A stretch of DNA of 64,000 nucleotides from Chiridota heheva (taxonomy: Eukaryota; Echinodermata; Holothuroidea; Apodida; Chiridotidae): positions 595,852 to 659,851 of the forward strand of contig JAIGNY010001718.1 in the NCBI GenBank assembly GCA_020152595.1, in the 5' to 3' direction. The position numbers and the translations under genes were made by a program. Shown here piece after piece: positions 4,101-55,011 of this stretch (positions are counted from its first letter, which is position 1; every line of letters starts with the position of its first letter). Under the pieces are notes generated by a model. The model made no database searches, was not told the origin of the DNA, and saw only the letters and a program-made list of their open reading frames with translations.

Positions 4101-6017
4101 CTTCGTCAAGTTCTCAAAAGGAATCTTCTGTATCTGTGTATGAAATTTCCTAACTTTTTGCTAATGACATTTTACAGTGTAAGTCTGTCTGTAATTACTA
4201 TGTACACATTTACACAGGCAGTTCTGTGGGGTCTACCACTTGCAACGTCACATATTTAAATAAATTTGTGGACGACATAGAAAGTGGTTATTCTGAACTT
4301 TCACACTTTTTCAATTGTTCTTTTATAGAGGTTACTAAGTATTGAGTAAGTGTCAAACATCAGTTAAGAGCAAACTTGCTTTCACATGTCACCAGTCCTT
4401 TAAGTCTACTACTGCATAAATATTTATGTTATATGCATGCACCAGGAAAAGCAAGTACATACCTTAACCACTAAAACACATTCAATTAAAAAGTTAGTAC
4501 AATATGAAAAAATTGTATTGCAGTGTACTCTACAAAGGGCAGTGTTTATTTGCATAAATACTTGGAATTTTTTTGAAAGATTTACTTTGATCACGAAAAT
4601 TCACATATTAGCGGATACTAAAAGCAGCTAATCTGCTCCATCAAATTATTTTCAATTTTCATGCTTTATGTCCCTATTTCTGTGGAATTGACCACATCTG
4701 TCTGTATTCAGTATTTTCAAGTTTGTTTCTAATTGTACCATATACACAGTATGTTATACCAAGGAAGTATTGTCGCTTCCATGGTCATACTATATATACA
4801 TGTATATCTTGTCATGTACTGTATCTCCTGTATAAATTGCATACTTTCAATTAGGCCTAAAAAAATTGTTTGCTTGCCCTTTCTTGTGGAAAATTGTAAG
4901 GGAGGGGCGGGCAGAATTTTTTTTTCGTTTTTTTTTCTTCTCTAAATTTGGACCTTTGTCAAATTACCGTCTTCATCAACAAACACATGAAGAAGTTAAT
5001 AGCAATCGCTTGACACAAGAACGCCGCTTTTTCTGGTCTTTAAAGACTGTTATCACACTAATGACCGACATCTTTTCTCTTCGATGGCCTTCAATGTAAT
5101 ATGGTAACGCAAAAATGGTTGCCATGCCATTTTGTAGGGATTTGTATAGATTTTTATGAAGCGTAGAGATTTAGATAAAATTTAAGGCCTAAGGTATGTG
5201 TAACTGTGAGTCACTTGGATAGAAAATCAATGGAAGTTGTTTATATTTTTGTATCATCAATCTCCACAGTTAGCTTTATCAATCATGTTCTCCTTTCAAT
5301 GCTTTTCTTCAGGAAAAAATGCTGCAAAGCTTTTCTGTCTTCCTTTGTTTCACAAGGTTCACATCACCACACTGGATGTCTACCTTTTCCAACGACTGAC
5401 TTTGGAGGTTATTGACCTTCCTTAATAATCTTTGAGTGAAAAAAATTCACCTTTGAGAATACAAGAGATTTCCTAAAAGTACCTACATGTACATGTCCGT
5501 GCAGATTATTAGCAGTGGGGAAGTTTTTTTTTCAAAATTCAGATACTAACATACAAGACTTATTATTGTATTTGATAATCATGTAGATTAAGTAATGGTG
5601 CAATTTGCATTCATAAGGTACTAGCCCCAAGAGAATGAATGTAGTATACTCCTCTTCCATATGAGGGGAACTGTTTTCAATTCAAGACTAGAACAGCATC
5701 TCTTGAACTAACTGTGCTTTGTGTTTCATGTCGTGCTTGTATACAGTACATGTTGCATGTATAAACTTGCAGATATCAGCAAAAGAGTTGAAACTTGAAA
5801 TTGACTTTGCAGCCCTCACTTGATCATGAAGGGAGTTGTTGTAGCTCTTGGACTTATGGACATGGAATATATGGATAGAAAAAATACCAATATATATGTC
5901 AGTGTTGTCACTGTTACATAATTAATGAAGGAGTTGAATTCAAAATGAACTCCTACACGTCTTCATTTGTTACCCCAAAGCTGTCTGCTGTATATCCGTC
6001 CTTCCATTCATCATCCT
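4101..6017. other. No gene recognised
   Basis: AT-rich sequence; short open frames lack any recognisable family. The degraded 3' portion of the RTE-like LINE begins at about 6018. Confidence 0.4.
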
Positions 6018-7607
6018 CTTAGTTGACCTTCAGTCCAAGTTTTTCTGCAGTAGATGCTAATTCATCTGTCTTGGCCTAGATATCAACATGACAATGATAC
6101 GAAGGAAGACAGATGTTGTCAGCAAAGTCCAGGTCTTCAAGCAAAGTGGTCAATGTCCATCAGATGCCTCTTGTCAGATTGCACCACATTTGTCATAATC
6201 CAGTGGATGCAAAGGGAGAACAAATGTGGAGACAAAATACATCCTTGCTTGACCACAGTCTTGATATCAAAAGCTTTTGTAAGATTTCTGGCGTATACAA
6301 GATGTGATTAAAGCATGTGTTTGATGATGCTTACAAGTTTGGTGGGGATGCCATAATGTCTCAAGTATTTACCAAAGAGAATCAAGGTGGATGCTGTCAA
6401 ATTCACGGTGGATGCTGTCAAATCACGATGGATGCTGTCAAATCACGGTGGATGCTGTCAAATCACGGTGGATGCTGTCAAATCATGGTGGATGCTGTCA
6501 AATCACGGTGGATGCTGTCAAAAGCCACCTCAAGATCTATCAAATTTGTATTTACTGGTGTATTCGATTCCTTGTTCTGTTCCAGGATTTGCCTCAGGCT
6601 TAAGGTAAAAATGTGGTCCCCATGACTTTTCCTTGCAGATTCCTGCTTGTTCTGGTCTGAGTTTTGTGTCGATGGTAGCAGTCATACAATCAAGAAGAAT
6701 TTTACTGAAGATCTTGCTGGTCAGTGAGAGCAAAGATATTCTTCTTGAATTGTTGCAGTCTGCAGGATCCCCTTTGGTAGTTTGATGACTAGGCCAATTT
6801 TCCAATCTGTGGGTATGTCTTCAGTTTCCCAGATCTGTTTGAACATTTTGGTCAATAATCTGGGTGTCTTGCTCCTCTACTTTCAGCATTTCAGCGCTTA
6901 CTCCATCAATGCCAGGGGCTTTATTATTCTTCATGGCTCTAATAGTGGCTTTGATCTCATAATGTGAGTGGGTCAGTATTCACCTATAAATTGTGTACTG
7001 CCTCTGGAATATCAGCAGGCTCAAAAGGTTCCTGTCTGTTTAAAATGTTGTGGAAATGCTCTTTCCATCTGTCCACTTTTTCTGCTTTTTTAGTGATGAT
7101 GTTGCCATGCTTTTTTTGCACTGGTTGGTCACTGTTTTTGTAGCCCCCTCTTAGTGTTTTTGTGATGTATAAGGTCTTCAAGTCTTGCTGCCTTGCAGCT
7201 TCTTCTGCCTTGTGCTAGTCATTCAATAAAAGCCTCATCTGATTGCATCATTTTCTTGACCCTTTGTCTAAATCAGTATAAATTAATAGTTTGTAAACGT
7301 TCTTTTAGTCTCTATGAATTCAGTTTCTGTTTGGTTTCTTTCCTTTCATTCCATGTGGACTGCCTAATTCACTCTTTCTTCTTCCTCTTTAAGCCAAGGA
7401 CCCATTCTCCTGTATCACAGAATGCTTAGTGAAAGCTCGTAAGACTAAGGCTTTTTTGTTGATCCTCCAAAACCTTATAACGGTTCCGTAGTTCTAGCTG
7501 AAATGTCGTATTAGTTTCAGCATCTCTTAATCTTGAGGAGTCAATCTGTCTGGCCCTCTCGTGTCTCCTCTTTGTCTTCCAATGCTTGAGAGCTATACAT
7601 GAAACAA
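6018..7607 (-). pseudogene. RTE-like reverse transcriptase and linker, degraded
   Basis: Reading 5' to 3' on the - strand, a basic linker (KHWKTKRRHERARQIDSSRL, 7570-7510 region) is followed by LYITKTL, RWKEHFHNILNRQEP (7060-7000), CNNSRRISLLSLTSKIFSKI (6755-6690), RPEQAG (6650), and motif A I-D-L-E-V-A-F-D-S-I-H (6540-6510). Then come KTVVKQGCILSPHLFSL near 6240 and LEDLDFADN near 6130. These are the fingers and palm landmarks of a non-LTR RT. The second catalytic aspartate of the F-A-D-D box is changed to asparagine, and several frameshifts separate the pieces. A 20-bp tandem array sits exactly at motif A. No function is expected. Confidence 0.85.
6386..6526 (-). repeat. 20-bp tandem array at RT motif A
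   Basis: Unit GGTGGATGCTGTCAAATCAC (+ strand) starts at 6386, 6407, 6427, 6447, 6467, 6487 and 6507; the first copy is 21 bp. On the coding strand the unit encodes the F-D-S-I-H stretch of RT motif A. It was therefore amplified from LINE coding sequence. Because 20 is not a multiple of three, the frame is destroyed. Confidence 0.9.
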
Positions 7608-8362
7608 GTATGATACAGCATTCCACAAATCGCCTGTCCGGACACCCAGGGCAACCAAAAAACTTGTCCGGGCAAGCTCAATTTTAAAAGAGCTTGCCCG
7701 CCGGGCAACCATTTATTCTAGCCAAAACAGCCCTTAAGAAAATTAGAAATACGATATACAACATGTTACAAGGTCAGTACTTTACAAGAAATTCAAAAAA
7801 TAATCCTAAAAATAGTCATAATATGACTTACGACTGGGTTAATCCAGAACGGTTTGAGTAATCTTTTATCTCAAGAATGCACTAGTACTGCAATGCTCGT
7901 ACATACATACACATATATGACTACGGGAATTTCACTCCCTTGAGCTAAATGCCTGGCCTGATCACAGTACTGTGCCGTGTAAGTAGCGCTAATGTAACTA
8001 AACCTATAACTATGACAGAAACACAGTTCGGTAGGTGATTAATTTCATTCTGTCCAAGAGAAATGTAAATAAATATACGTAATTACAATTTCAAGGAATA
8101 TTTGATGTTCAGTAGAGACAGATATAACTGGTACATCATATTAGATTAACTAGTGCATGTACTGTCCCGTGTGTGGAAATTAGGAAGGAGCAAAATGTAA
8201 ACAATTCTTTTTTAAGAAGGCTAACATTAGTATATATACCAGAAATTCTGCTCGTATTTCTAGGCAAGTGGTTTGTTATGACCAGGCAACTATAAAAATA
8301 AAGCTGTTGCTGCCCAGCGGGCAAGTAGAATTCTGATCCATTTGTCGAATGCTGGTATGGTA
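7608..8362. mobile_element. hAT-like non-autonomous DNA transposon with 8-bp target duplication
   Basis: The element occupies 7616-8354 (739 bp). Its ends are inverted: CAGCATTCCACAAATCG on the left and the complement of CAGCATTCGACAAATGG on the right. Flanking copies are GTATGATA (7608-7615) and GTATGGTA (8355-8362), a 7/8 match. An 8-bp duplication and a CAG terminus are hallmarks of the hAT superfamily. Removing the element with one flank joins the LINE endonuclease reading frame as GSDHTILVSCIALKHWK, which proves the boundaries. Subterminal GGGCAAG/CTTGCCCG words recur near both ends. No transposase is encoded. Confidence 0.85.
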
Positions 8363-8395: not shown

Positions 8396-8982
8396 TTAAA
8401 GGATATTTCCTTGGAATTTCATTTTTATGTATCTCATAAAGAAAAATTTAAGCAACAGATTGGTGAAAAAAACATGTTGATATCTTATTCCTTAAAGAAT
8501 TTTTTGAACTTTAAAGATTTTTTTTGCCCTCATAAAAATAACTTTTATACTGAGTCTTTTGTCATCATTATGATGTCATCATTGCGCTTCCTGTACTTAC
8601 CTTTATGTATTTCTTCGAAAACTAATTGCCAATTTTTCATAATATAAATATAAGTTACAAGAACAGATTCAAAAACATTATTGTATATTCCCTTCTATAC
8701 TATTCTTAATCATTTTTGAAGAAAAATGTTCCCAATCATTCAGAAAATAAAATTTTCAACGAAATACATAAAGAATAGTACAGAAGTGATGTGATGACAT
8801 CATAATGATGACTTAAGAATCAGACAAACAATCTCTTTTACACAGACAAGAACAACCATTTAAATTCAATAACTTCTTGTAGGAATAAGATTTTAACTTC
8901 TTTTTTTTCTTGACCAATCTGTTTCTTATATTGTCCTCTATCAAGTATATTAAAATGAAATTTCATGGGAATATTTCTTTAA
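8396..8982. mobile_element. TTAA-flanked long-inverted-repeat element (MITE/foldback)
   Basis: The element is 8400-8978 (579 bp), flanked by TTAA at 8396-8399 and 8979-8982. The two arms (about 8400-8650 and 8720-8978) are diverged inverted copies of each other over roughly 250 bp. Both share an AGG-ATATT-start, a GAAATTTCATTTT block, ACAGATTGGT, CTTATTCCT, GTCATCATTATGATGTCATC and TTTATGTATTTC in the same order. Collapsing the element to one TTAA restores the LINE frame as TLQDVKARRGADVGSDH. A TTAA target duplication is characteristic of piggyBac-type transposition, but the AGGAATATTCCC-like end is not a classic piggyBac end. No coding capacity is present. Confidence 0.85.
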
Positions 8983-9228
8983 CATCTTGTAGAGTGCTTT
9001 TCCATCTGTTGTTAATGATGATGTGATCAATTTGACCTTTGGTCTGTCCATCTGGTGATTTCCATGTCAACCTGTGGATATCTTTGTGTTGGAACAAGGT
9101 ACCACTTATTACGAGGTTGTTTTCTTGGCATACAGTAGTTCACAGAGACGTTGCCCATTTTGGTTGATGGAACCACAACCATTTCTTCCCATAATTCTTT
9201 CTTTCTCACTGTTGTCTCCTCCCACTCT

Positions 9229-10388
9229 TGCATTGGAATCGTTGATTATCAGTAGCATGCCATGTGATGGTGTTTCCTGAATGTTGTCTCCTCCCACTCT
9301 TGCATTGGAATCGTTGGTTTATATCAGCAGCATGCCATGTGATGGTATTTCCTGAATGTTGTCTCCTCCCACTCTTGCATTGGAATCGTTGATTATCAGC
9401 AGCATGCCATGTGATGGTGTTTCCTGAATGTTGTCTCCTCCCACTCTTGCATTGGAATCGTTGGTTATCAGCAGCATGCCATGTGATGGTATTTCCTGAA
9501 TGTTGTCTCCTCCCACTCTTGCATTGGAATCGTTGATTATCAGCAGCATGCCATGTGATGGTGTTTCCTGAATGTTGTCTCCTCCCACTCTTGCATTGGA
9601 ATCGTTGGTTATCAGCAGCATGCCATGTGATGGTATTTCCTGAATGTTGTCTCCTCCCACTCTTGCATTGGAATCGTTGATTATCAGCAGCATGCCATGT
9701 GATGGTGTTTCCTGAATGTTGTCTCCTCCCACTCTTGCATTGGAATCGTTGGTTATCAGCAGCATGCCATGTGATGGTATTTCCTGAATGTTGTCTCCTC
9801 CCACTCTTGCATTGGAATCGTTGATTATCAGCAGCATGCCATGTGATGGTGTTTCCTGAATGTTGTCATTGGAATTGTTGATTATCAGCAGCATGCCATG
9901 TGATGGTGTTTCCTGAATGTTGTCATTGGAATTGTTGATTATCAGCAGCATGCCATGTGATGGTGTTTCCTAAATGTTGTCATTGGAATCGTTGACTATC
10001 AGCAGCATGCCATGTGATGGTGTTTCCTGAATGTTGTCATTGGAATCGTTGATTATCAGCAGCATGCCATGTGATGGTGTTTCCTAAATGTTGTCATTGG
10101 AATCGTTGATTATGCATGCCATGTGATGGTGTTTCCTAAATGTTGTCATTGGAATCGTTGATTATCAGCAGCATGCCATGTGATGGTGTTTCCTAAATGT
10201 TGTCATTGGAATCGTTGATTATCAGCAGCATGCCATGTGATGGCGTTTCCTAAATGTTGTCATTGGAATCGTTGATTATCAGCAGCATGCCATGTGATGG
10301 TGTTTCCTGAATGTTGTCTCCGCCCACTCTTGCATTGGAATCGTTGATTATCAGCAGCATGCCATGTGATGGTGTTTCCTGAATGATC
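9229..10388 (-). repeat. 72/57-bp tandem array inside the LINE endonuclease, 18 copies
   Basis: Counting CATGCCATGTGATGG, copies lie at 9256, 9331, 9403, 9475, 9547, 9619, 9691, 9763, 9835, 9892, 9949, 10006, 10063, 10115, 10172, 10229, 10286 and 10358. Most spacings are 72 bp (24 codons) below 9835 and 57 bp (19 codons) above. The 57-bp form lacks 15 bp encoding five residues around A-R-V-G-G. On the coding strand each long unit encodes Q-E-T-P-S-H-G-M-L-L-I, then N-D-S-N-A-R-V-G-G-D-N, the EN metal-site loop. The 9319-9951 part stays open for 210 codons, but this is repeat plus LINE, not a gene. Confidence 0.93.
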
Positions 10389-10600
10389 TTCTGTAGCTGG
10401 TCATAGAAGATATCCTTTGCTTCATCTTCTGCATCTTCTATTGGTGCATAGCAGGTCAGAATTGTCAGTTTGGTGTATCTGCAGTAGAATCTCGCCGTTA
10501 ATAGTCTCTCTTCTATTGGTTTCCATTTGATCAGGGATTAATTTCCTTGGTGACAAGTAGTGCCACACTTACCCAATGATGATTGTCAGATCTTCCTGAG

Positions 10601-10699
10601 TGTACAGTAGTATGGTGTGTCCAGTGTTAAGTGTGTATAGTAGTATGGTGTGTCCAGTGTTAAGTGTGTACAGTAGTATGGTGTGTTCAGTATTAGGTT
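10601..10699 (-). repeat. 33-bp tandem repeat in LINE endonuclease N-terminus, 3 copies
   Basis: TGTACAGTAGTATGGTGTGT-type units start at 10601, 10634 and 10667. On the coding strand each encodes an 11-residue step containing L-N-T-G-H-T-I-L-L-Y-T, a segment that normally occurs once in RTE endonucleases. Amplification kept the reading frame. Confidence 0.85.
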
Positions 10700-11050
10700 G
10701 AGTTTTTCCTGCCCCAGTCATCCCTAGGATGTCAATGTTATAGTTGTCCACCTCCCTCAACCTTGGCCAGCTTGCCAGTTTGATACATTGTACATGCATT
10801 CCAGCAGCCAACCCTCAACTTCATTTTTGGCTTCAGGGAATCCACCTTTGGGCTGGCAGCTTCCTTGTGGGTTTGGCTGCCATCCGTGATCAAAGCAGAT
10901 AACTGGCATGCTTCATCCCTGTCACCATGGATTAGTTGTACATTGGTACCTTTGGTATAGGTTTCTGTAACAAAAGATGTTACAAGTGAGATGGGTTGTC
11001 AGCCCCATGCTCAACCCTCCTCCTTTCTCTGGGCTTGGGATTGGCAAGAA

Positions 11051-14000
11051 ACAAGTATCCAGGCAAAATTCATTATTGATTTTAGATTTTAAAAATTATC
11101 AAAAATGTATTTCCACTTCTAAAAAACTTTTAAGAACCAATTACTTTTCTGCACAAATCGATACAAAAGATTAACAATTAATGGGTTTGTATAAGAAAAT
11201 AGTTCTATATGATACGCATGTACAGACATCCCTTTATAAAAATTGTACATTTAAAGACCTGAACATTGAAATAGCAGGAAAATCTTCACAACTTTGCTAT
11301 TTTAATAGTTTTGATGGATATTCAAGCAATTTTGGTTGACTCAACCTGTTTTTCTGTTATGGCTCTGAGGTCACAGCAGGTCTAGTATTGCTGAGTACAT
11401 GCTGACAATCCACCATCTTTGATACACTAACTTGAAAGTTTTAAAATAATTACAAACGTTTGCAAATCAAACTAATAATTTGTGATATAATTTGATAAAT
11501 GTGAAATTTAATACTGCATAATAATTTTTTCGAAGTATGAATCAGAAAGAAATAAAAGCATTAAAAATATAATGGGATTTTATTTAAAGTCCCATTTACA
11601 ATATTTGTTGGGCACTACAATTATAGAAAAAGATGAACAAAATGTGTCAGAAGAAAGATTATTTCGGGCATGTGAGTTGTCAGGTTGTTTGCATTGTAAT
11701 TTAATTCGACAAACTGCGAATATCAAACTCCTGGATTGATGTATACTTGAATGCATCAAAACTTTATATTCATTAAATTCTTTGTGACTGCATAGAAGCT
11801 GATAGAACTAAAGGACTGTGCAGAAAGTGGATCAAATGTGAAATAATGGGGACACTATATCTGGAGTCTAATAGTATTCACAATTTTTGAAGAGTTCTTT
11901 TGACCTTCCATCTTAAGAATAATGAGAGATGAAGTGTTTATCCCAGCAGTTGTATCTGTCTCTCTTCTCTTGGCTCATTGCTCCTGGCTGCTCCGTCTTT
12001 TATCTGATTAAACAAATTTTTGCAAAATTTGCAGGTGAATTGGTTTTGATGAGTCTATCGTGAAAGGACATCAATAGACATCAAGTGGGATTGACATTAA
12101 CAGTCAGTTGTGTGCCTCACTTCATTGACGGACAAAGACAAATGGACGAGGAGACAAGTGGCTAATGAAACAGGTATGGGTCACATGCTGCCTTTTTACA
12201 TTTTTTGGGACAATTCATTGATTTTCCTGTGCAACATTGGTCAGTGGTGAATGAAGCTTTGGGAAGTGGTTTTGCAATATTTCAGAGATATAAATTGCTC
12301 AAAAGGTGGGCTATTTTATCACGCACATATAAAAATATAAAAAAAGGGATCTTTCTGCAATTCATCACTTTGTGTGTATGTCAGAACAGCATCAATTCCT
12401 TACACCTTTTTTTTACTGAAATGAAAATATTCCTTAAATTCTTTATTTTGAACTGAAGTTCCATAGAGCACCTTTCCTAAAACTATTCTTTTTTTGCAAT
12501 TTTCATAATTAATCTAAGGAAAAATGTCATGTAGAATTATGTATTAGAGACTTAATTGTATATGTTTGAAGGTATTAATAGGCCCTGTGCTGCTACAGCA
12601 CATTTGATTTTTAATCAAAATCCACTTTCCTCCCCTTCTTTATACTTGAAGATGTCAGGGTTTCATTAATCAAAGTGCAATGTACTGTATTAAATAGACA
12701 TTGAACCCAAGGTTGCATAGAACATAACTCATAAAGCATTCTTACTCATCAGTATGCACAAACCATGATGGATAATACATTGATTTCTTCTATGCTTAGT
12801 TGTGATTGTGAATTTATGTACATTTTTTCATCACAATATGCAAGTACTGTAAACAGGGCCGTGTAAATAAGGAGAATAGAGGGATACAGCCATATTGTAG
12901 CTCTAATATCGTACCTTATTCAATATTGTTAATATTGTTCATTATCACCCTGAAATTTCCCAAGGACCGGGTGAGAAGAATTTTTATTGAGAATTTAGTG
13001 AATGCTTTAAGTTGGCTTAGGTGCAATTTATGATAACGCTTTTGTTGAGAGTTTGTAGTGGTCTCAATCCTTCTACACAGTTACTTGTACCACACCCCTG
13101 TTTCAAACTATGACAGAGTGCCAGAGCCCTCCTGTTATATATAAAAGTATGACAGCTAGGAAACAGTATTGCAACATACGTATATAGAACTTCAACCATA
13201 TGCTGATATGACTAATAACTACTGTAACTTCTCTTCCAATCAGTGTTTTTTTTTTCTAATTAGTGTCATCTCTCCAGATACTTTTGAATAAATTACAGCA
13301 GCCAGCACAAGCCAAGTATTTGATATCTTTCAAATCAATAATTAAAAACTGACATTGGAAAATATTTGATATTGCCTATCTGATTGAATGAGGCAGGCTT
13401 GGAGGTGGAAGACAAAGATGCATTAAAATGTCACACCTTCATATTTATGTCATGCATACGAATTAACTCAGCCATGAAGAACCACACTTGAGATCAAAAC
13501 CAGATTTACTCACAACGCATTTGTTTGTAAGACTTTGTAAAAAAGTCGAGTAATTAGAGCAAACTAATACTGCTTCTCACACCATGAATAGCAAAAGAAT
13601 CACATCTTTCTTTCATAAATGTGGAGCAACGATCTTTTGAGATGTTGTTTTGAAAGATTTAAACCTCAAATAGCTCTCTTTTCGACGTGGTCATAAATGT
13701 CATTCAAGTCTTGAAGAGTTCTGGAAGGCTTTGATCTCTGCGATAAGATGAGGAGAGATGACAACTTGCTCTGACTGTTTGATGTGGAGCGAAAACTCTT
13801 GGTGCAGATAATGCAAACTATTTGATATAAACACCAAACAGCATGCAACATGTTGTCCTGGATTAGACTCGTAACCAAAAAAGAAGGTCACTGTCAAGAA
13901 AATGTATGAATTAACTTCCATGTTTATTATGTAAATTTATGCAAAACTTAGGATCAGAAAAGTGAGTGATCATATGTTTGTGTTTTTCTATCATATTTTG

Positions 14001-26660: not shown

Positions 26661-26875
26661 TCCCAGTTGATCTCATCTATTCCCCCCCTCCCCGATCCCA
26701 ATTCCCACCCAATCCTTCTAATGCACCTCAGTGATCCTCTACCCATGGGCAAGATATGCCTACCGAAAGTTGCGGAGTGGCAAAAGCTTAAAATCATGCA
26801 CAAAAAAATCACCAAATAAGAGATGCAAATTTGAAAAAAGTGAGGGGAGATGCTCCTCATGCACCCTTGTAATCC

Positions 26876-27528
26876 CTCCTATGTCCCTACCTTGTAATCC
26901 TTCCTATGTCCCCACCTTGTAATCCCTTATATGTCCCCACCTTGTAATCCCTTATATGTCCCCACCTTGTAATCCCTCCCCTGTCCCCACCTTGTAATCC
27001 CTCCTATGTCCCCACCTTGTAATTCTCCTATGTCCCCATCTTGTAATCCCTCCTATGTCCTACCTCCTTGTAATCCCCCTATGTCCCCACCTTGTAATCC
27101 CTCCTATGTTCCCACCTCCTTATAATCCCTCCTGTTCCCACCTCCTTGTAATCCCTCCTATGTCCCTGCCGTGTAATCCCATCTATGTCCCACCTCCTTG
27201 TAATCCCTCCTATGTCCCCACCTTTTAATCCATTTTATGTTCCCACCTTGTAATCCCTCCTATGTCTCCACCTTGTAACCCCTCCTATGTCCCCACCTTG
27301 TAATCCCTCCCATGTCCCCACCTTGTAATCACTCCTATGTTCCCACCTTGTAATCCCTCCTATGTCTCCACCTTGTAATCCTTCCTATGTCCCCACCTGC
27401 TTGTAATCCCTCTTATGTTCCCACCTTGTAATCCCTCCTATGTCTCCACCTTGTAATCCCTCCTATGTCCCCACCTCATTGTAATCCCTCCTATGTCCCC
27501 ACCTTGTAATCCCTCCTATATCTCCACC
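26876..27528. repeat. 25-bp minisatellite, ~26 copies
   Basis: The unit is CTTGTAATCCCTCCTATGTC followed by CCCAC. Variants include CTTATATG, TTTTAATCC and inserted CCTC before CTTG. It follows the 19-bp array after ~215 bp of unique sequence, so together they make about 1.2 kb of strongly C/T-biased + strand. Confidence 0.92.
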
Positions 27529-28237
27529 TATCCCCCATTAAAGGTCTAATAACATACAACAATTTCTATAGTTGTTAAAAGAATATCTTAAATCTGATAA
27601 ATCACTTTTAATTTTTTGGATCACGGTTTGATCAATTTTTTTAATAATGCCAAATATATGATGTATGGCTGGGGCTGATAGCTCACAGTCTTCATGTAAT
27701 TTGTAACATATCTTTCTAGACAATCTTAGTCGTTAAAAATGATGAGAAGGTATTCTTGCTAGAATGTGATGGGTATGGAAAAGACTCAAAAAAATTTTGG
27801 TCAGAATTTACTGCATCACTTTAAAGTATTATGATAGACATTTAAAAAATGTGTTTACAATAGAAAATACAGTACTAAAGGTCGCCCTGTAATAAATCAT
27901 AATTTTGTATAAAAAGGTGCAAATGGATGCTTGAGATTTTAAAATGCTGTTAAATTGAACATTTCAAATCTATTTGCACTAAATATTTTGCCACTCATGT
28001 TTTTCAATAGATTTAGCAATTTAGCTTAATGTTACCTTCACACACACCCCCATTATACTGTATCTTAAGAAATCAAAAACATGTTGCCTTCGAGTTTCAT
28101 GCTTTTTTCTCACAATTCAACGTTGTCTTTGAGCTGCATGCTTTCTCACAATTTAACTTATTCAAGAAGTGTTTTTGTCTTTTGCTTTCTTTCAAATTTT
28201 GCTCTTATTAAGTGAAGATTAAGCATGTGTTTAACCT
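27529..28237. other. No gene recognised
   Basis: AT-rich sequence between the 25-bp minisatellite and the (TA)n tract. Confidence 0.45.
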
Positions 28238-40773: not shown

Positions 40774-41570
40774 AATGACCTCTTTCCAATTAGCCACCTT
40801 AGATGTGAATGGTGGTAACATTTATTGAGCTTGACCAGGAAAGGCTGACTTCCTGTGTCTCACTTGGATGTATAAACCTTCCTTGTACAGACTTGAAAGT
40901 ATTGTGTGTGTTGCATTAATCCTATGCAATGCATTATTTGCAAAAAGCTTTTAATACACAATACAACTTTTTATGAAACACTGCAAATGCCTGAAATTAT
41001 TGTCTGATCAGTTCTGTGTTTTGTTGAACGTTGCAATTTGTCCTTGTTGGAATTTGGAAGTGTGCAAGCTGTTTTGCTTAATGGAAGTCTCTCTTCAGTG
41101 TTTTTTACATTTCTTTGCATGCAGTTATAATGGCATCAAACCAACATGTACAGGACATTATATCAACCTTCTAGATATGAGTATTTGTTATAACTAATTT
41201 GGATTAAAGCTCTTACGTGGGCAACTGGATACATGTTTAGTGAGACTGTTTTTCATTAGGAACACATTTCAAAGTTAGAGGATTTGATTTTTGCTTTTAA
41301 GAAAGTGGTATTATATTTTGTAAATATTTGTTACATAGAAACTAAACAAAACATAGGGAGTGTCTAAACAAACGTTTTTATCCTTGGGATAATTTGAATT
41401 TGTATTTTTAATTTGCATTTTAAATTAGGATAGTGTTTTGGTAACGGGGGGGTGGGTCACTTTCCTCACCATGTTCTTCTTTCTTATCTTGTAATGTATT
41501 GTGCTCTTTAACACAATACAATGTTTGCTTAAAAGTGTATCTTTATGTTAATTTATTATTTAAATTTAAC
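40774..41570. other. No gene recognised
   Basis: AT-rich sequence between the TTAA element and the 50-bp satellite. Confidence 0.45.
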
Positions 41571-42762
41571 ACTAAGATACAGTAGCATGCAGTGACAGCA
41601 AGATATAGAACACTTCCTACACTAAGATATGGCAGCGTACAGTGACAGCAAGATGTAGAACACTTCTTACAATTAGATACAGTAGCATGCAGTGACAGCA
41701 AGATATAGAACACTTTCTACACTAAGATACGGTAGCATGCAGTGACAGCAAGATGTAGAACACTTCTTACAATTAGATACGGTAGCATGCAGTGGCAGCA
41801 AGATGTAGAACACTTTCTACACTAAGATACGGTAGCATGCAGTGACAGCAAGATGTAGAACACTTCTTACAATTAGATACGGGAGCATGCAGTGGCAGCA
41901 AGATGTAGAACACTTCCTACACGCAGATATGGTAGCATGCAGTGACAGCAAGATGTAGAAGACTTCCTACACTAAGATACGGTAGCATGCGGTGACAGCA
42001 AGCTGTAGAAGACTTCCTACACTAAGATACGGTAGCATGCAGTGACAGCAAGATGTAGAAGACTTCCTACACTAAGATACGGTAGCATGCAGTGGCAGCA
42101 AGCTGTAGAAGACTTCCTACACTAAGATACGGTAGCATGCAGTGACAGCAAGATGTAGAAGACTTCCTACACTAAGATATGGTAGCATGCAGTGACAGCA
42201 AGATGTAGAAGACTTCCTACACTAAGATATGGTAGCATGCAGTGACAGCAAGATGTAGAACACTTCCTACACTAAGATACGGTAGCATGCAGTGGCAGCA
42301 AGATGTAGAAGGCTTCCTACACTAAGATACGGTAGCATGCAGTGACAGCAAGATGTAGAAGGCTTCCTACACTAAGATACGGTAGCATGCAGTGACAGCA
42401 AGATGTAGAACACTTCCTACACTAAGATACGGTAGCATGCAGTGACAGCAAGATGTAGAAGACTTCCTACACTAAGATACGGTAGCATGCTGTGACAGCA
42501 AGATGTAGAACACTTCCTACACTAAGATACGGTAGCATGCAGCAAGATGTAGAAGACTTCCTACACTAAGATACGGTAGCATGCAGTGACAGCAAGATGT
42601 AGAACACTTCCTACACTAAGATACGGTAGCATGCAGTGACAGCAAGATGTAGAAGACTTCCTATACTAAAATATGGTAGCATGCAGTGACAGCAAGATGT
42701 AGAAGACTTCCTATACTAAAATATGGTAGCATGCAGTGACAGCAAGATGTAGAAGACTTCCT
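41571..42762. repeat. 50-bp satellite array, 24 copies
   Basis: The unit begins ACTAAGATACGGTAGCATGC and continues AGTGACAGCAAGATGTAGAA and CACTTCCTAC. GCATGC marks lie every 50 bp from 41585 to 42535 (one reads GCGTAC), then at 42579, 42629, 42679 and 42729. One unit lost 6 bp (spacing 44). At the left end (41571-41900) two unit types alternate (CCTACACTAAG versus CTTACAATTAG), giving a 100-bp higher-order period. To the right the units are homogeneous. Confidence 0.95.
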
Positions 42763-50148: not shown

Positions 50149-50664
50149 GTGCCTTGTAAGTATTGGTAGAGATTGTGCCTTATCGGTAGAGATTGTGCCT
50201 TGTAAGTATCGGTAGAGATTGTGCCTTGTAAATATCGGTAGAGTTTGTGCCTTGTAAGTATCAGTAGAGATTGTGCCTTGTAAGTATCGGTAGAGATTGT
50301 GCCTTGTAAGTATCGGTAGAGATCGTGCCTTGTAAATATCGGTACAGATTGTGCCTTGTAAGTATCGGTAGAGATTGTGCCTTGTAAGTATCGGTAGAGA
50401 TCGTGCCTTGTAAATATCGGTACAGATTGTGCCTTGTAAGTATCGGTAGAGATTGTGCCTTGTAAGTATCGGTAGAGATCGTGCCTTGTAAATATCGGTA
50501 GAGATCGTGCCTTGTAAGTATCGGTAGAGATCGTGCCTTGTAAGTATCGGTAGAGATCGTGCCTTGTAAGTATCGGTAGAGATTGTGCCTTGTAAGTATC
50601 GGTAGAGATTGTGCCTTGTAAGCATCGGTAGAGATCGTGCCTTGTAAGTATAGGTAGAGATCGT
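50149..50664. repeat. 26-bp minisatellite, ~20 copies
   Basis: The unit is GTGCCTTGTAAGTATCGGTA followed by GAGATY. One unit near 50177 lost 6 bp. The complementary strand has no stop in any phase, and 26 is not a multiple of three, so all three frames stay open (up to 231 codons) and read the same 26-residue peptide. This is a property of the repeat, not evidence of a protein. Confidence 0.95.
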
Positions 50665-54008: not shown

Positions 54009-55011
54009 TTACAGAAAAATCTTAGCTTGCGACAAAGTTAGTACTCTTGCCCAAGCTAGTACTCTTGCCCAAGCTAGTACTCTTGCCCAAGCTAGTACTC
54101 TTTTCCAAGCCAGAACTGCTAGCTTATAAGAAGCTTGCTGCAAGCTAATACTCTTGCCCAAACTAGTACTCTTGCCCAAGCTAGTACTCTTGCCCAAGTT
54201 AGTACTCTTGATCAAGCTAAAACTATTAGCTTTAACTACTCTTGCCCAAGCTAGTACTTTTCCCCAAGCTAGTACTCTTGTCCAAGCTAGAACTATTAGC
54301 TTATAAAAAAGCTTGCTGCAAGTTAATACTCTTGCCCAAGCTATAACTATTAGCTTATAAGAAGTTTGCTGCAAGCTAGTACTCATGCCCAAGTTAGAAC
54401 TATTAGCTTATAAGAAGCTTGCTGCAAGCTAGTGCTCTTGCCCAAGCTAGAACTATCAGCTTATAAGAAGCTTGCTGCAAGCTAGTACTCTTGCCCAAGC
54501 TAGTACTCTTGCCCAAGCTATAACTATTAGCTTATAAGAAGCTTGCTGCAAGCTAGTACTCTTGCCCAAGCTAGAACTATTAGCTTATAAGAAGCTTGCT
54601 GCAAGCTAGTAATCTTGCCCAAGCTAGAACTATTAGCTTATAAGAAGCTTACTGCAAGCTAGTAATCTTGCCCAAGCTAGAACTATTAGCTTATAAGAAG
54701 CTTACTGCAAGCCAGTACTCTTGCCCAAGCTAGAACTATTAGCTTAAAAAAAGCTTGCTGCAAGCTAGTAAGTACTCTTGCCCAAGATAGTACTCTTGGC
54801 TAGTACTCTTGCCCAAGCTAGTACTCTTGCCCAAGCTAGTACTCTTGCCCAAGCTAGTACTCTTGCCCAAGCTAGTACTCTTGCCCAAGCTAGTACTCTT
54901 GCCCAAGCTATAACTATTAGCTTATAAGAAGCTTACTGCAAGCTAGTACTCTTGCCCAAGCTAGAACTATTAGCTTATAAGAAGCTTGCTGCAAGCTAGT
55001 TTTTTCTGTAA
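54009..55011. mobile_element. Foldback element, expanded form with 18- and 35-bp alternating units
   Basis: The ends are TTACAGAAAAATCTTAGCTT and the complement of TTACAGAAAAAACTAGCTTG, the same terminus as the 51-kb element. Inside, an 18-bp unit (CTAGTACTCTTGCCCAAG) alternates with a 35-bp unit (CTAGAACTATTAGCTTATAA then GAAGCTTGCTGCAAG), giving a 53-bp higher-order period. The 18-bp unit also runs in homogeneous tracts near 54045-54105 and 54795-54905. Each 35-bp unit holds the palindrome AGCTTGC-T-GCAAGCT. No coding gene is present; the open frames are repeat artefacts. Confidence 0.85.

What the first reader, a model, noticed from the sequence alone, without database searches (positions are those of the whole stretch)
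9229..10388. An 18-copy tandem array grown from the endonuclease metal-site loop of a LINE
The unit is exactly the part of the RTE-like endonuclease that includes the D-x-N-A-R-V-G motif. It joins the normal LINE sequence in frame on both sides (IFYDQLQKIIQETPSHG before, RIMGRNGCGSINQ after). The unit lengths 72 and 57 bp are multiples of three. Amplification of a catalytic loop within a transposon is unusual. It could be slippage in a dead copy, or it may have started while the frame still mattered.
Basis: partly seen in the sequence, partly recalled or inferred. Interest (0 to 1): 0.7.

Follow-up and report, generated by a model that had tools for sequence, protein, structure and literature searches.

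The report
Minisatellite inside a dead LINE
A piece of a dead jumping gene has been copied 18 times in a row, most likely by ordinary DNA repeat expansion; a related copy of the same jumping gene grew its own repeats at the same spot, which is mildly curious, but the repeats do not look like a working protein.

Summary
The array is real. On the minus strand, 9211-10384 (1174 bp) holds 18 head-to-tail units: nine of 72 bp, seven of 57, one of 52, one of 75. The unit encodes IQETPSHGMLLIINDSNARVGGDN, the D-x-N loop region of a LINE endonuclease; the LINE continues on both sides. That LINE copy is dead: a TTAA-flanked foldback insertion, a second ~740-bp insert, frameshifts and stops. The array is frame-broken too: in-frame stops in 6 of 18 units, a 5-bp deletion, length 3n+1. 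All 18 units carry an Asn codon where 57 of 65 scored relatives have Gly. A flank-only DNA search finds four copies of this subfamily: this one, two with a single loop, and one (C1171) with a different, separately born array (106 bp x3.2) over the same codons plus 29-bp and 46-bp arrays elsewhere in the endonuclease. Of 68 more distant copies examined, none has three or more loop units; one (L071) has a 26-bp duplication there. The array junction was found only at this locus. Best reading: a transposon-derived minisatellite born in a dead copy by slippage or unequal exchange, last amplified as a 144-bp dimer. A known kind; only the recurrence at one loop is unusual.

The parts
9211..10384 (-). 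18-unit tandem array (9x72, 7x57, 1x52, 1x75 bp)
   Evidence: TRF; unit-by-unit split
10313..10384 (-). unit 1 (72 bp), edge unit next to the upstream LINE flank
9862..10312 (-). block of 57-bp units (units 2-9, one cut to 52 bp); 57 = 72 minus 15 bp; TAG stop in units 3, 4, 5, 6, 8
9283..9861 (-). units 10-17: four A/B dimers of 144 bp (the last with a 3-bp TAA insert in unit 17)
9211..9282 (-). unit 18 (72 bp), edge unit next to the downstream LINE flank
10385..10560 (-). LINE endonuclease coding remnant upstream of the array; four genomic places by DNA
10600..10695 (-). second array in the same LINE copy: 33 bp x 2.9
10750..10989 (-). 5' part of the LINE endonuclease (MKLRVGCWNACTMYQTGKLA...)
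   Evidence: aligned to L075 at 87%
8983..9210 (-). LINE endonuclease remnant downstream of the array
8400..8978 (.). foldback/MITE-like insertion with TTAA on both sides (8396-8399, 8979-8982); empty site in sibling L075
7616..8354 (.). second insertion in the LINE, absent from siblings L075 and L077 (approximate ends)
5947..7615 (-). rest of the LINE including reverse-transcriptase remnant, frame broken many times
6380..6522 (-). third array in the same LINE copy: 20 bp x 7.1, from the RT-region codons DSIHRD; single in L075

Best explanation
It is a minisatellite born inside a dead or dying LINE copy. A 72-bp stretch of the endonuclease coding region was duplicated at a junction that shares two bases between its source ends (shown by the sequence), by replication slippage or error-prone break repair (inferred). 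The pair then misaligned repeatedly, by unequal exchange or slippage (inferred), into an array. One unit lost 15 bp and that 57-bp version spread as a block. Two neighbouring 72-bp units that had diverged at two sites were amplified together as a 144-bp dimer; the order of these steps is inferred from unit identities. No protein function is involved (inferred from the broken frame).
For: Unit structure, identical A and B units, and one private change in each of the two edge units. In-frame stops in 6 of 18 units, a 5-bp deletion, length 3n+1. Dead host LINE: foldback insertion with an empty site in sibling L075, a second insertion absent from L075 and L077, and 24 of 30 alignment gaps against L075 outside the arrays not multiples of three. 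Array junction pattern: 9 matches in the assembly, all inside this array. Siblings L077 and L078 have one loop. The window has 10 non-redundant arrays of period 15 or more and 4 or more copies in 64 kb, so array birth is common here.
Against: 72, 57 and 33 are multiples of three; within this copy 4 of 6 length events are (72, the 15-bp loss, 33, a 3-bp insert; against 20 and the 5-bp loss), one-sided P = 0.10. The 72-bp units are free of in-frame stops; only the 75-bp unit has one in the long-unit half. Two of four subfamily copies having arrays over the same codons is more than a uniform process would lead one to expect. No DNA folding signal explains the site: units fold no better than shuffles, z +0.8 to +2.1.
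Confidence: 0.9

Rival explanations
1. The array began in a living LINE as an in-frame expansion of the endonuclease loop and later decayed.
For: Each flank is in frame with its neighbouring unit; unit lengths 72 and 57 are multiples of three. In-frame expansions exist in other LINE copies of this genome: 18 bp x4.5 in L028 and x2.6 in L036, 33 bp x7.1 in L007 and x2.1 in L043; the frame stays open through the repeats in L028, L036 and L043, though L043 has stops elsewhere and the L007 reading is shifted.
Against: The junction is private to this locus, so no descendant was found that carries it. All 18 units have an Asn codon where 57 of 65 scored relatives have Gly. Stops and a frameshift lie inside the array. 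Of ten array events that I judged by hand to lie in LINE coding sequence (window 72, 33, 20; L075 106, 46, 29; L007/L043 33; L028/L036 18; L016 20; L071 26), 4 have a period that is a multiple of three, P = 0.44 against one third; adding the 39-bp repeat of L051 would make it 5 of 11.
Confidence: 0.06
2. This LINE carries a local hotspot: sequence in or near the loop provokes tandem duplication, so arrays arise repeatedly at the same codons.
For: Flank-only DNA search finds four subfamily copies, two of which have loop arrays with different unit ends (72 bp here, 106 bp in L075), so separate births. L071, a more distant copy, has a 26-bp duplication over part of the same loop. None of 68 more distant loci has three or more loop units.
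Against: Setting aside the ascertained window copy, 1 of 3 siblings against 0 of 68 gives about P = 0.04; counting the L071 duplication, 1 of 3 against 1 of 68 gives about 0.08 (both by hand). L075 also has arrays elsewhere in the endonuclease, so the loop is not special. No folding signal. Both array-bearing copies are old and have had time to collect arrays.
Confidence: 0.15
3. The copy number is an assembly artefact.
For: Arrays are hard to assemble; no read data are available here.
Against: The A/B alternation, the 57-bp block with its own private changes, and distinct edge units form a structured array. A search with the neighbouring 1801 bp found no second full-length place, so no alternative haplotype contig was seen (40 of 946 candidates scored).
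Confidence: 0.04

Closest known systems
Satellite DNAs derived from LINE open reading frames (Phodopus PROsat and seal Pvc20 from LINE-1 ORF2; chicken HinfI from CR1), as listed in PMC9659126 (passages seen)
   Same: Part of a LINE coding region became a tandem repeat unit.
   Different: Here it is one short array at one locus, still inside its parent LINE.
[quoted passage not shown] passages seen)
   Same: A duplication at a short repeat, then expansion and homogenisation.
   Different: The junction repeat here is only 2 bp, shorter than the 5-10 bp in that description.
In-frame repeat expansions in LINE endonuclease coding of this genome (L028, L036, L007, L043)
   Same: Tandem units grown from endonuclease codons.
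   Different: Periods 18 and 33, frame open through the repeats in L028, L036 and L043; the present array is frame-broken.

Membership tests
Transposon-derived minisatellite | head-to-tail units of tens of bp, locally arrayed | tested here: met
Transposon-derived minisatellite | unit homologous to part of a transposable element | tested here: met
   unit and flanks match LINE copies L075, L077, L078
Transposon-derived minisatellite | single-unit state in sibling copies | tested here: met
   L077 and L078 single loop; 67 of 68 more distant loci show no tandem duplication of the loop beyond micro-repeats of TRF score 39 or less, one (L071) has 26 bp x2.4. L075 has its own 106-bp array.
Transposon-derived minisatellite | length polymorphism between individuals | not testable with these tools
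   one assembly only
In-frame coding repeat of a living LINE | open frame through the array | tested here: not met
   stops in 6 of 18 units, frameshift in unit 5
In-frame coding repeat of a living LINE | same array in more than one insertion | tested here: not met
   junction pattern matched only at this locus, 9 of 9 matches
LINE with endonuclease and reverse transcriptase | endonuclease family match | tested here: met
   on relative L033, not on the window copy: PF03372 E 9.2e-12 and PF14529 E 8.5e-9, both above their cut-offs; window pieces alone gave no endonuclease match
LINE with endonuclease and reverse transcriptase | reverse transcriptase match | tested here: inconclusive
   one of four RT-region window pieces: RVT_1 E 7e-5, 23.1 bits, below the curated cut-off 29.6; the other three gave none
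RTE/BovB clade | phylogenetic placement of the reverse transcriptase | not tested
   resemblance recalled only

The most novel reading that the evidence does not exclude
The endonuclease loop region of this LINE group is a recurrent birthplace of minisatellites: two of four close copies grew arrays separately over the same codons, and a distant copy has a short duplication there, which would imply a sequence-borne trigger of tandem duplication.
Probability: 0.15. Interest if true: 0.45.

Novelty: new member of a known kind. Interest (0 to 1): 0.27.

Why it matters
It is a clear example of a minisatellite caught inside its parent transposon, with single-loop siblings in the same genome for comparison and one sibling with a separate array over the same stretch. 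That makes the birth steps of a tandem repeat (junction, first deletion, dimer takeover) readable. It says nothing about LINE enzymology.

Tried and rejected
Considered and rejected: coding array under selection (stops, frameshift, private junction); array as a mobile unit or scattered satellite (four places match the array, all LINE copies, with the tool's caution that it skips common words); hairpin-driven expansion (units fold no better than shuffles); frame preference among periods (P 0.10 for six length events in this copy, 0.44 for ten hand-chosen LINE arrays).

Led nowhere: Rfam at gathering thresholds (0 matches); PDB sequence searches (one match at E 0.69 to an unrelated protein; none); viral contigs by protein and by DNA pattern. 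Pfam on the translated array gave several matches, three of them above their curated cut-offs (Glyco_transf_21, SVM_signal, LBP_C), each resting on 8-22 residues with no stretch passing on its own; I take them as repeat-driven and spurious. Paper searches aimed at LINE coding-region repeats: one search listed one paper (not opened), none, none, one off-topic; two searches gave listings, of which I looked at passages of two papers.

Limits: the downstream-flank DNA search (window 8983-9210) did not complete. A planned set of 20 further sibling loci and a random genomic control were not obtained, so the background rate comes from the window and the sibling loci only. The endonuclease span used for counting was set by hand and may reach outside coding sequence (L048).

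Full report
What is there. The window is G000:C1708:595852-659851 of a 1.1-Gb assembly in 3744 contigs. On the minus strand, 10384 down to 9211 holds 18 units: 72 bp x9, 57 bp x7, 52 bp x1 and 75 bp x1. In LINE sense the order is one 72-bp unit, eight short units (one cut to 52 bp), then nine long units. The 57-bp form is the 72-bp form minus 15 bp (codons for ARVGG). Units 10-17 alternate types A and B, which differ at two sites; A units 10, 12, 14 and 16 are identical, B units 11, 13 and 15 are identical, and unit 17 is B with a 3-bp TAA insert. So a late growth step copied a 144-bp dimer. Each of the two edge units (1 and 18) carries one change seen in no other unit.

Origin. A unit reads IQETPSHGMLLIINDSNARVGGDN. 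The upstream flank ends ...IFYDQLQKI and the downstream flank begins SEKERIMGRNG. The two source ends of the duplication share two bases at the junction. The LINE runs from about 11070 to about 5950 by alignment to its siblings. It is interrupted by a foldback element at 8400-8978 flanked by TTAA (inverted repeat; fold z-score -8.8 against 20 shuffles; empty site in sibling L075) and by a ~740-bp insert at about 7616-8354 absent from L075 and L077. The RT part is in broken frames; one of four pieces matches RVT_1 below its cut-off. Endonuclease family membership is shown on relative L033 (PF03372, PF14529), not on the window copy itself. The RTE label and the assignment of the D-x-N residues to the catalytic site are recalled knowledge, not a result of these calls.

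Frame. Each flank is in frame with its neighbouring unit, but units 3, 4, 5, 6 and 8 carry TAG, unit 17 a TAA insert, unit 5 lost 5 bp, and the array length is 1174 = 3n+1. All 18 units have the codon AAC (Asn) at a place where 57 of 65 scored relatives have Gly; at the following motif positions 56 of the 65 have D and 63 have N (68 loci, 65 with the motif covered). Units 8 and 9 also lost the D. The amplified loop was therefore already diverged.

Close relatives. The array as DNA query finds four places: itself and three LINE copies. The array-free upstream flank finds the same four (all 4 candidates scored; the tool warns that common words are skipped). L003/L077 (C3679) and L004/L078 (C748) have one loop. 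L002/L008/L075 (C1171; 85-87% identical outside arrays) has a 106-bp x3.2 array over the same codons, but its unit runs from DQL to ERIM, so it was born separately; it also has 29 bp x39 and 46 bp x5 arrays from other endonuclease codons. Of 30 alignment gaps between the window copy and L075 outside the arrays, 24 are not multiples of three (summed over five stretches). The array junction as a pattern has 9 matches, all in this array.

Distant relatives. A protein search scored 150 of 812 candidates. Leaving out the window copy, C1171 and C3679, 147 remain, of which I examined 68 as a set, plus C802 as L079 (one motif). None of the 68 has three or more loop units; one, L071, has a 26-bp x2.4 duplication over part of the loop; five others show only micro-repeats of TRF score 39 or less at its edge. 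In a hand-set endonuclease span, 3 of 68 have an array of period 15 or more and 4 or more copies (L007, L028, L048). L028 and L036 (18 bp) and L007 and L043 (33 bp) have expansions in multiples of three, with the frame open through the repeats in L028, L036 and L043.

Background. The window has 10 non-redundant arrays with period 15 or more and 4 or more copies in 64 kb, three of them in this LINE copy (one, at 10600, counts through its 17-bp reading); the 68 sibling loci have 12 in 219 kb. Tandem-array birth is thus common in this genome, including in the foldback family: L075 has a 22-bp x42 array beginning in a copy of it. The excess in the window copy and L075 is suggestive but small and ascertained: leaving out the window copy, 1 of 3 siblings against 0 of 68 gives about 0.04, or about 0.08 if the L071 duplication is counted (both by hand).

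Reading. Best: a minisatellite that arose in a dead LINE (0.9). Birth by slippage or unequal exchange is inferred from the junction and the unit pattern. Literature: passages of two reviews list satellites from LINE ORFs and the slippage model (PMC9659126; PMC6947457); other papers were seen only as search listings. Searches aimed at LINE coding-region repeats gave nothing on point in their listings, which does not show that such arrays are unreported.

Noticed in passing
window 8396-8982: TTAA-flanked foldback/MITE-like element inserted in the LINE; similar copies in L075, one leading into a 22-bp x42 array.
   Followed up: partly
window 11350-11880: Dispersed ~530-bp repeat: the search with window 11000-12800 lists 54 matches (40 of 946 candidates scored), many covering this stretch at about 72-85% identity.
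   Followed up: no
L007 and L043 (endonuclease span): 33-bp units encoding TWTAPNGNTRN, 7.1 and 2.1 copies in two LINE copies about 95% alike: length variation of a coding repeat between paralogous copies; whether the loci are a segmental duplication was not settled.
   Followed up: partly
L028 and L036 (endonuclease span): 18-bp units encoding GERNAN, 4.5 and 2.6 copies, frame open through the repeats.
   Followed up: partly
L071, about 171-231 bases after the endonuclease match start, LINE sense: 26-bp x2.4 duplication over part of the same loop in a distant LINE copy.
   Followed up: partly
L075 5726-7114: 46-bp x5 and 29-bp x39 arrays grown from endonuclease codons of the sibling LINE.
   Followed up: partly
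L076 863-5840: 51-bp x98.6 array, about 5 kb, downstream of the sibling LINE.
   Followed up: no
window 41569-42762, 26865-27529, 50149-50661, 54035-55000: Other large minisatellites (50 bp x24, 25 bp x26, 26 bp x20, and a compound array), showing how array-rich the region is.
   Followed up: no
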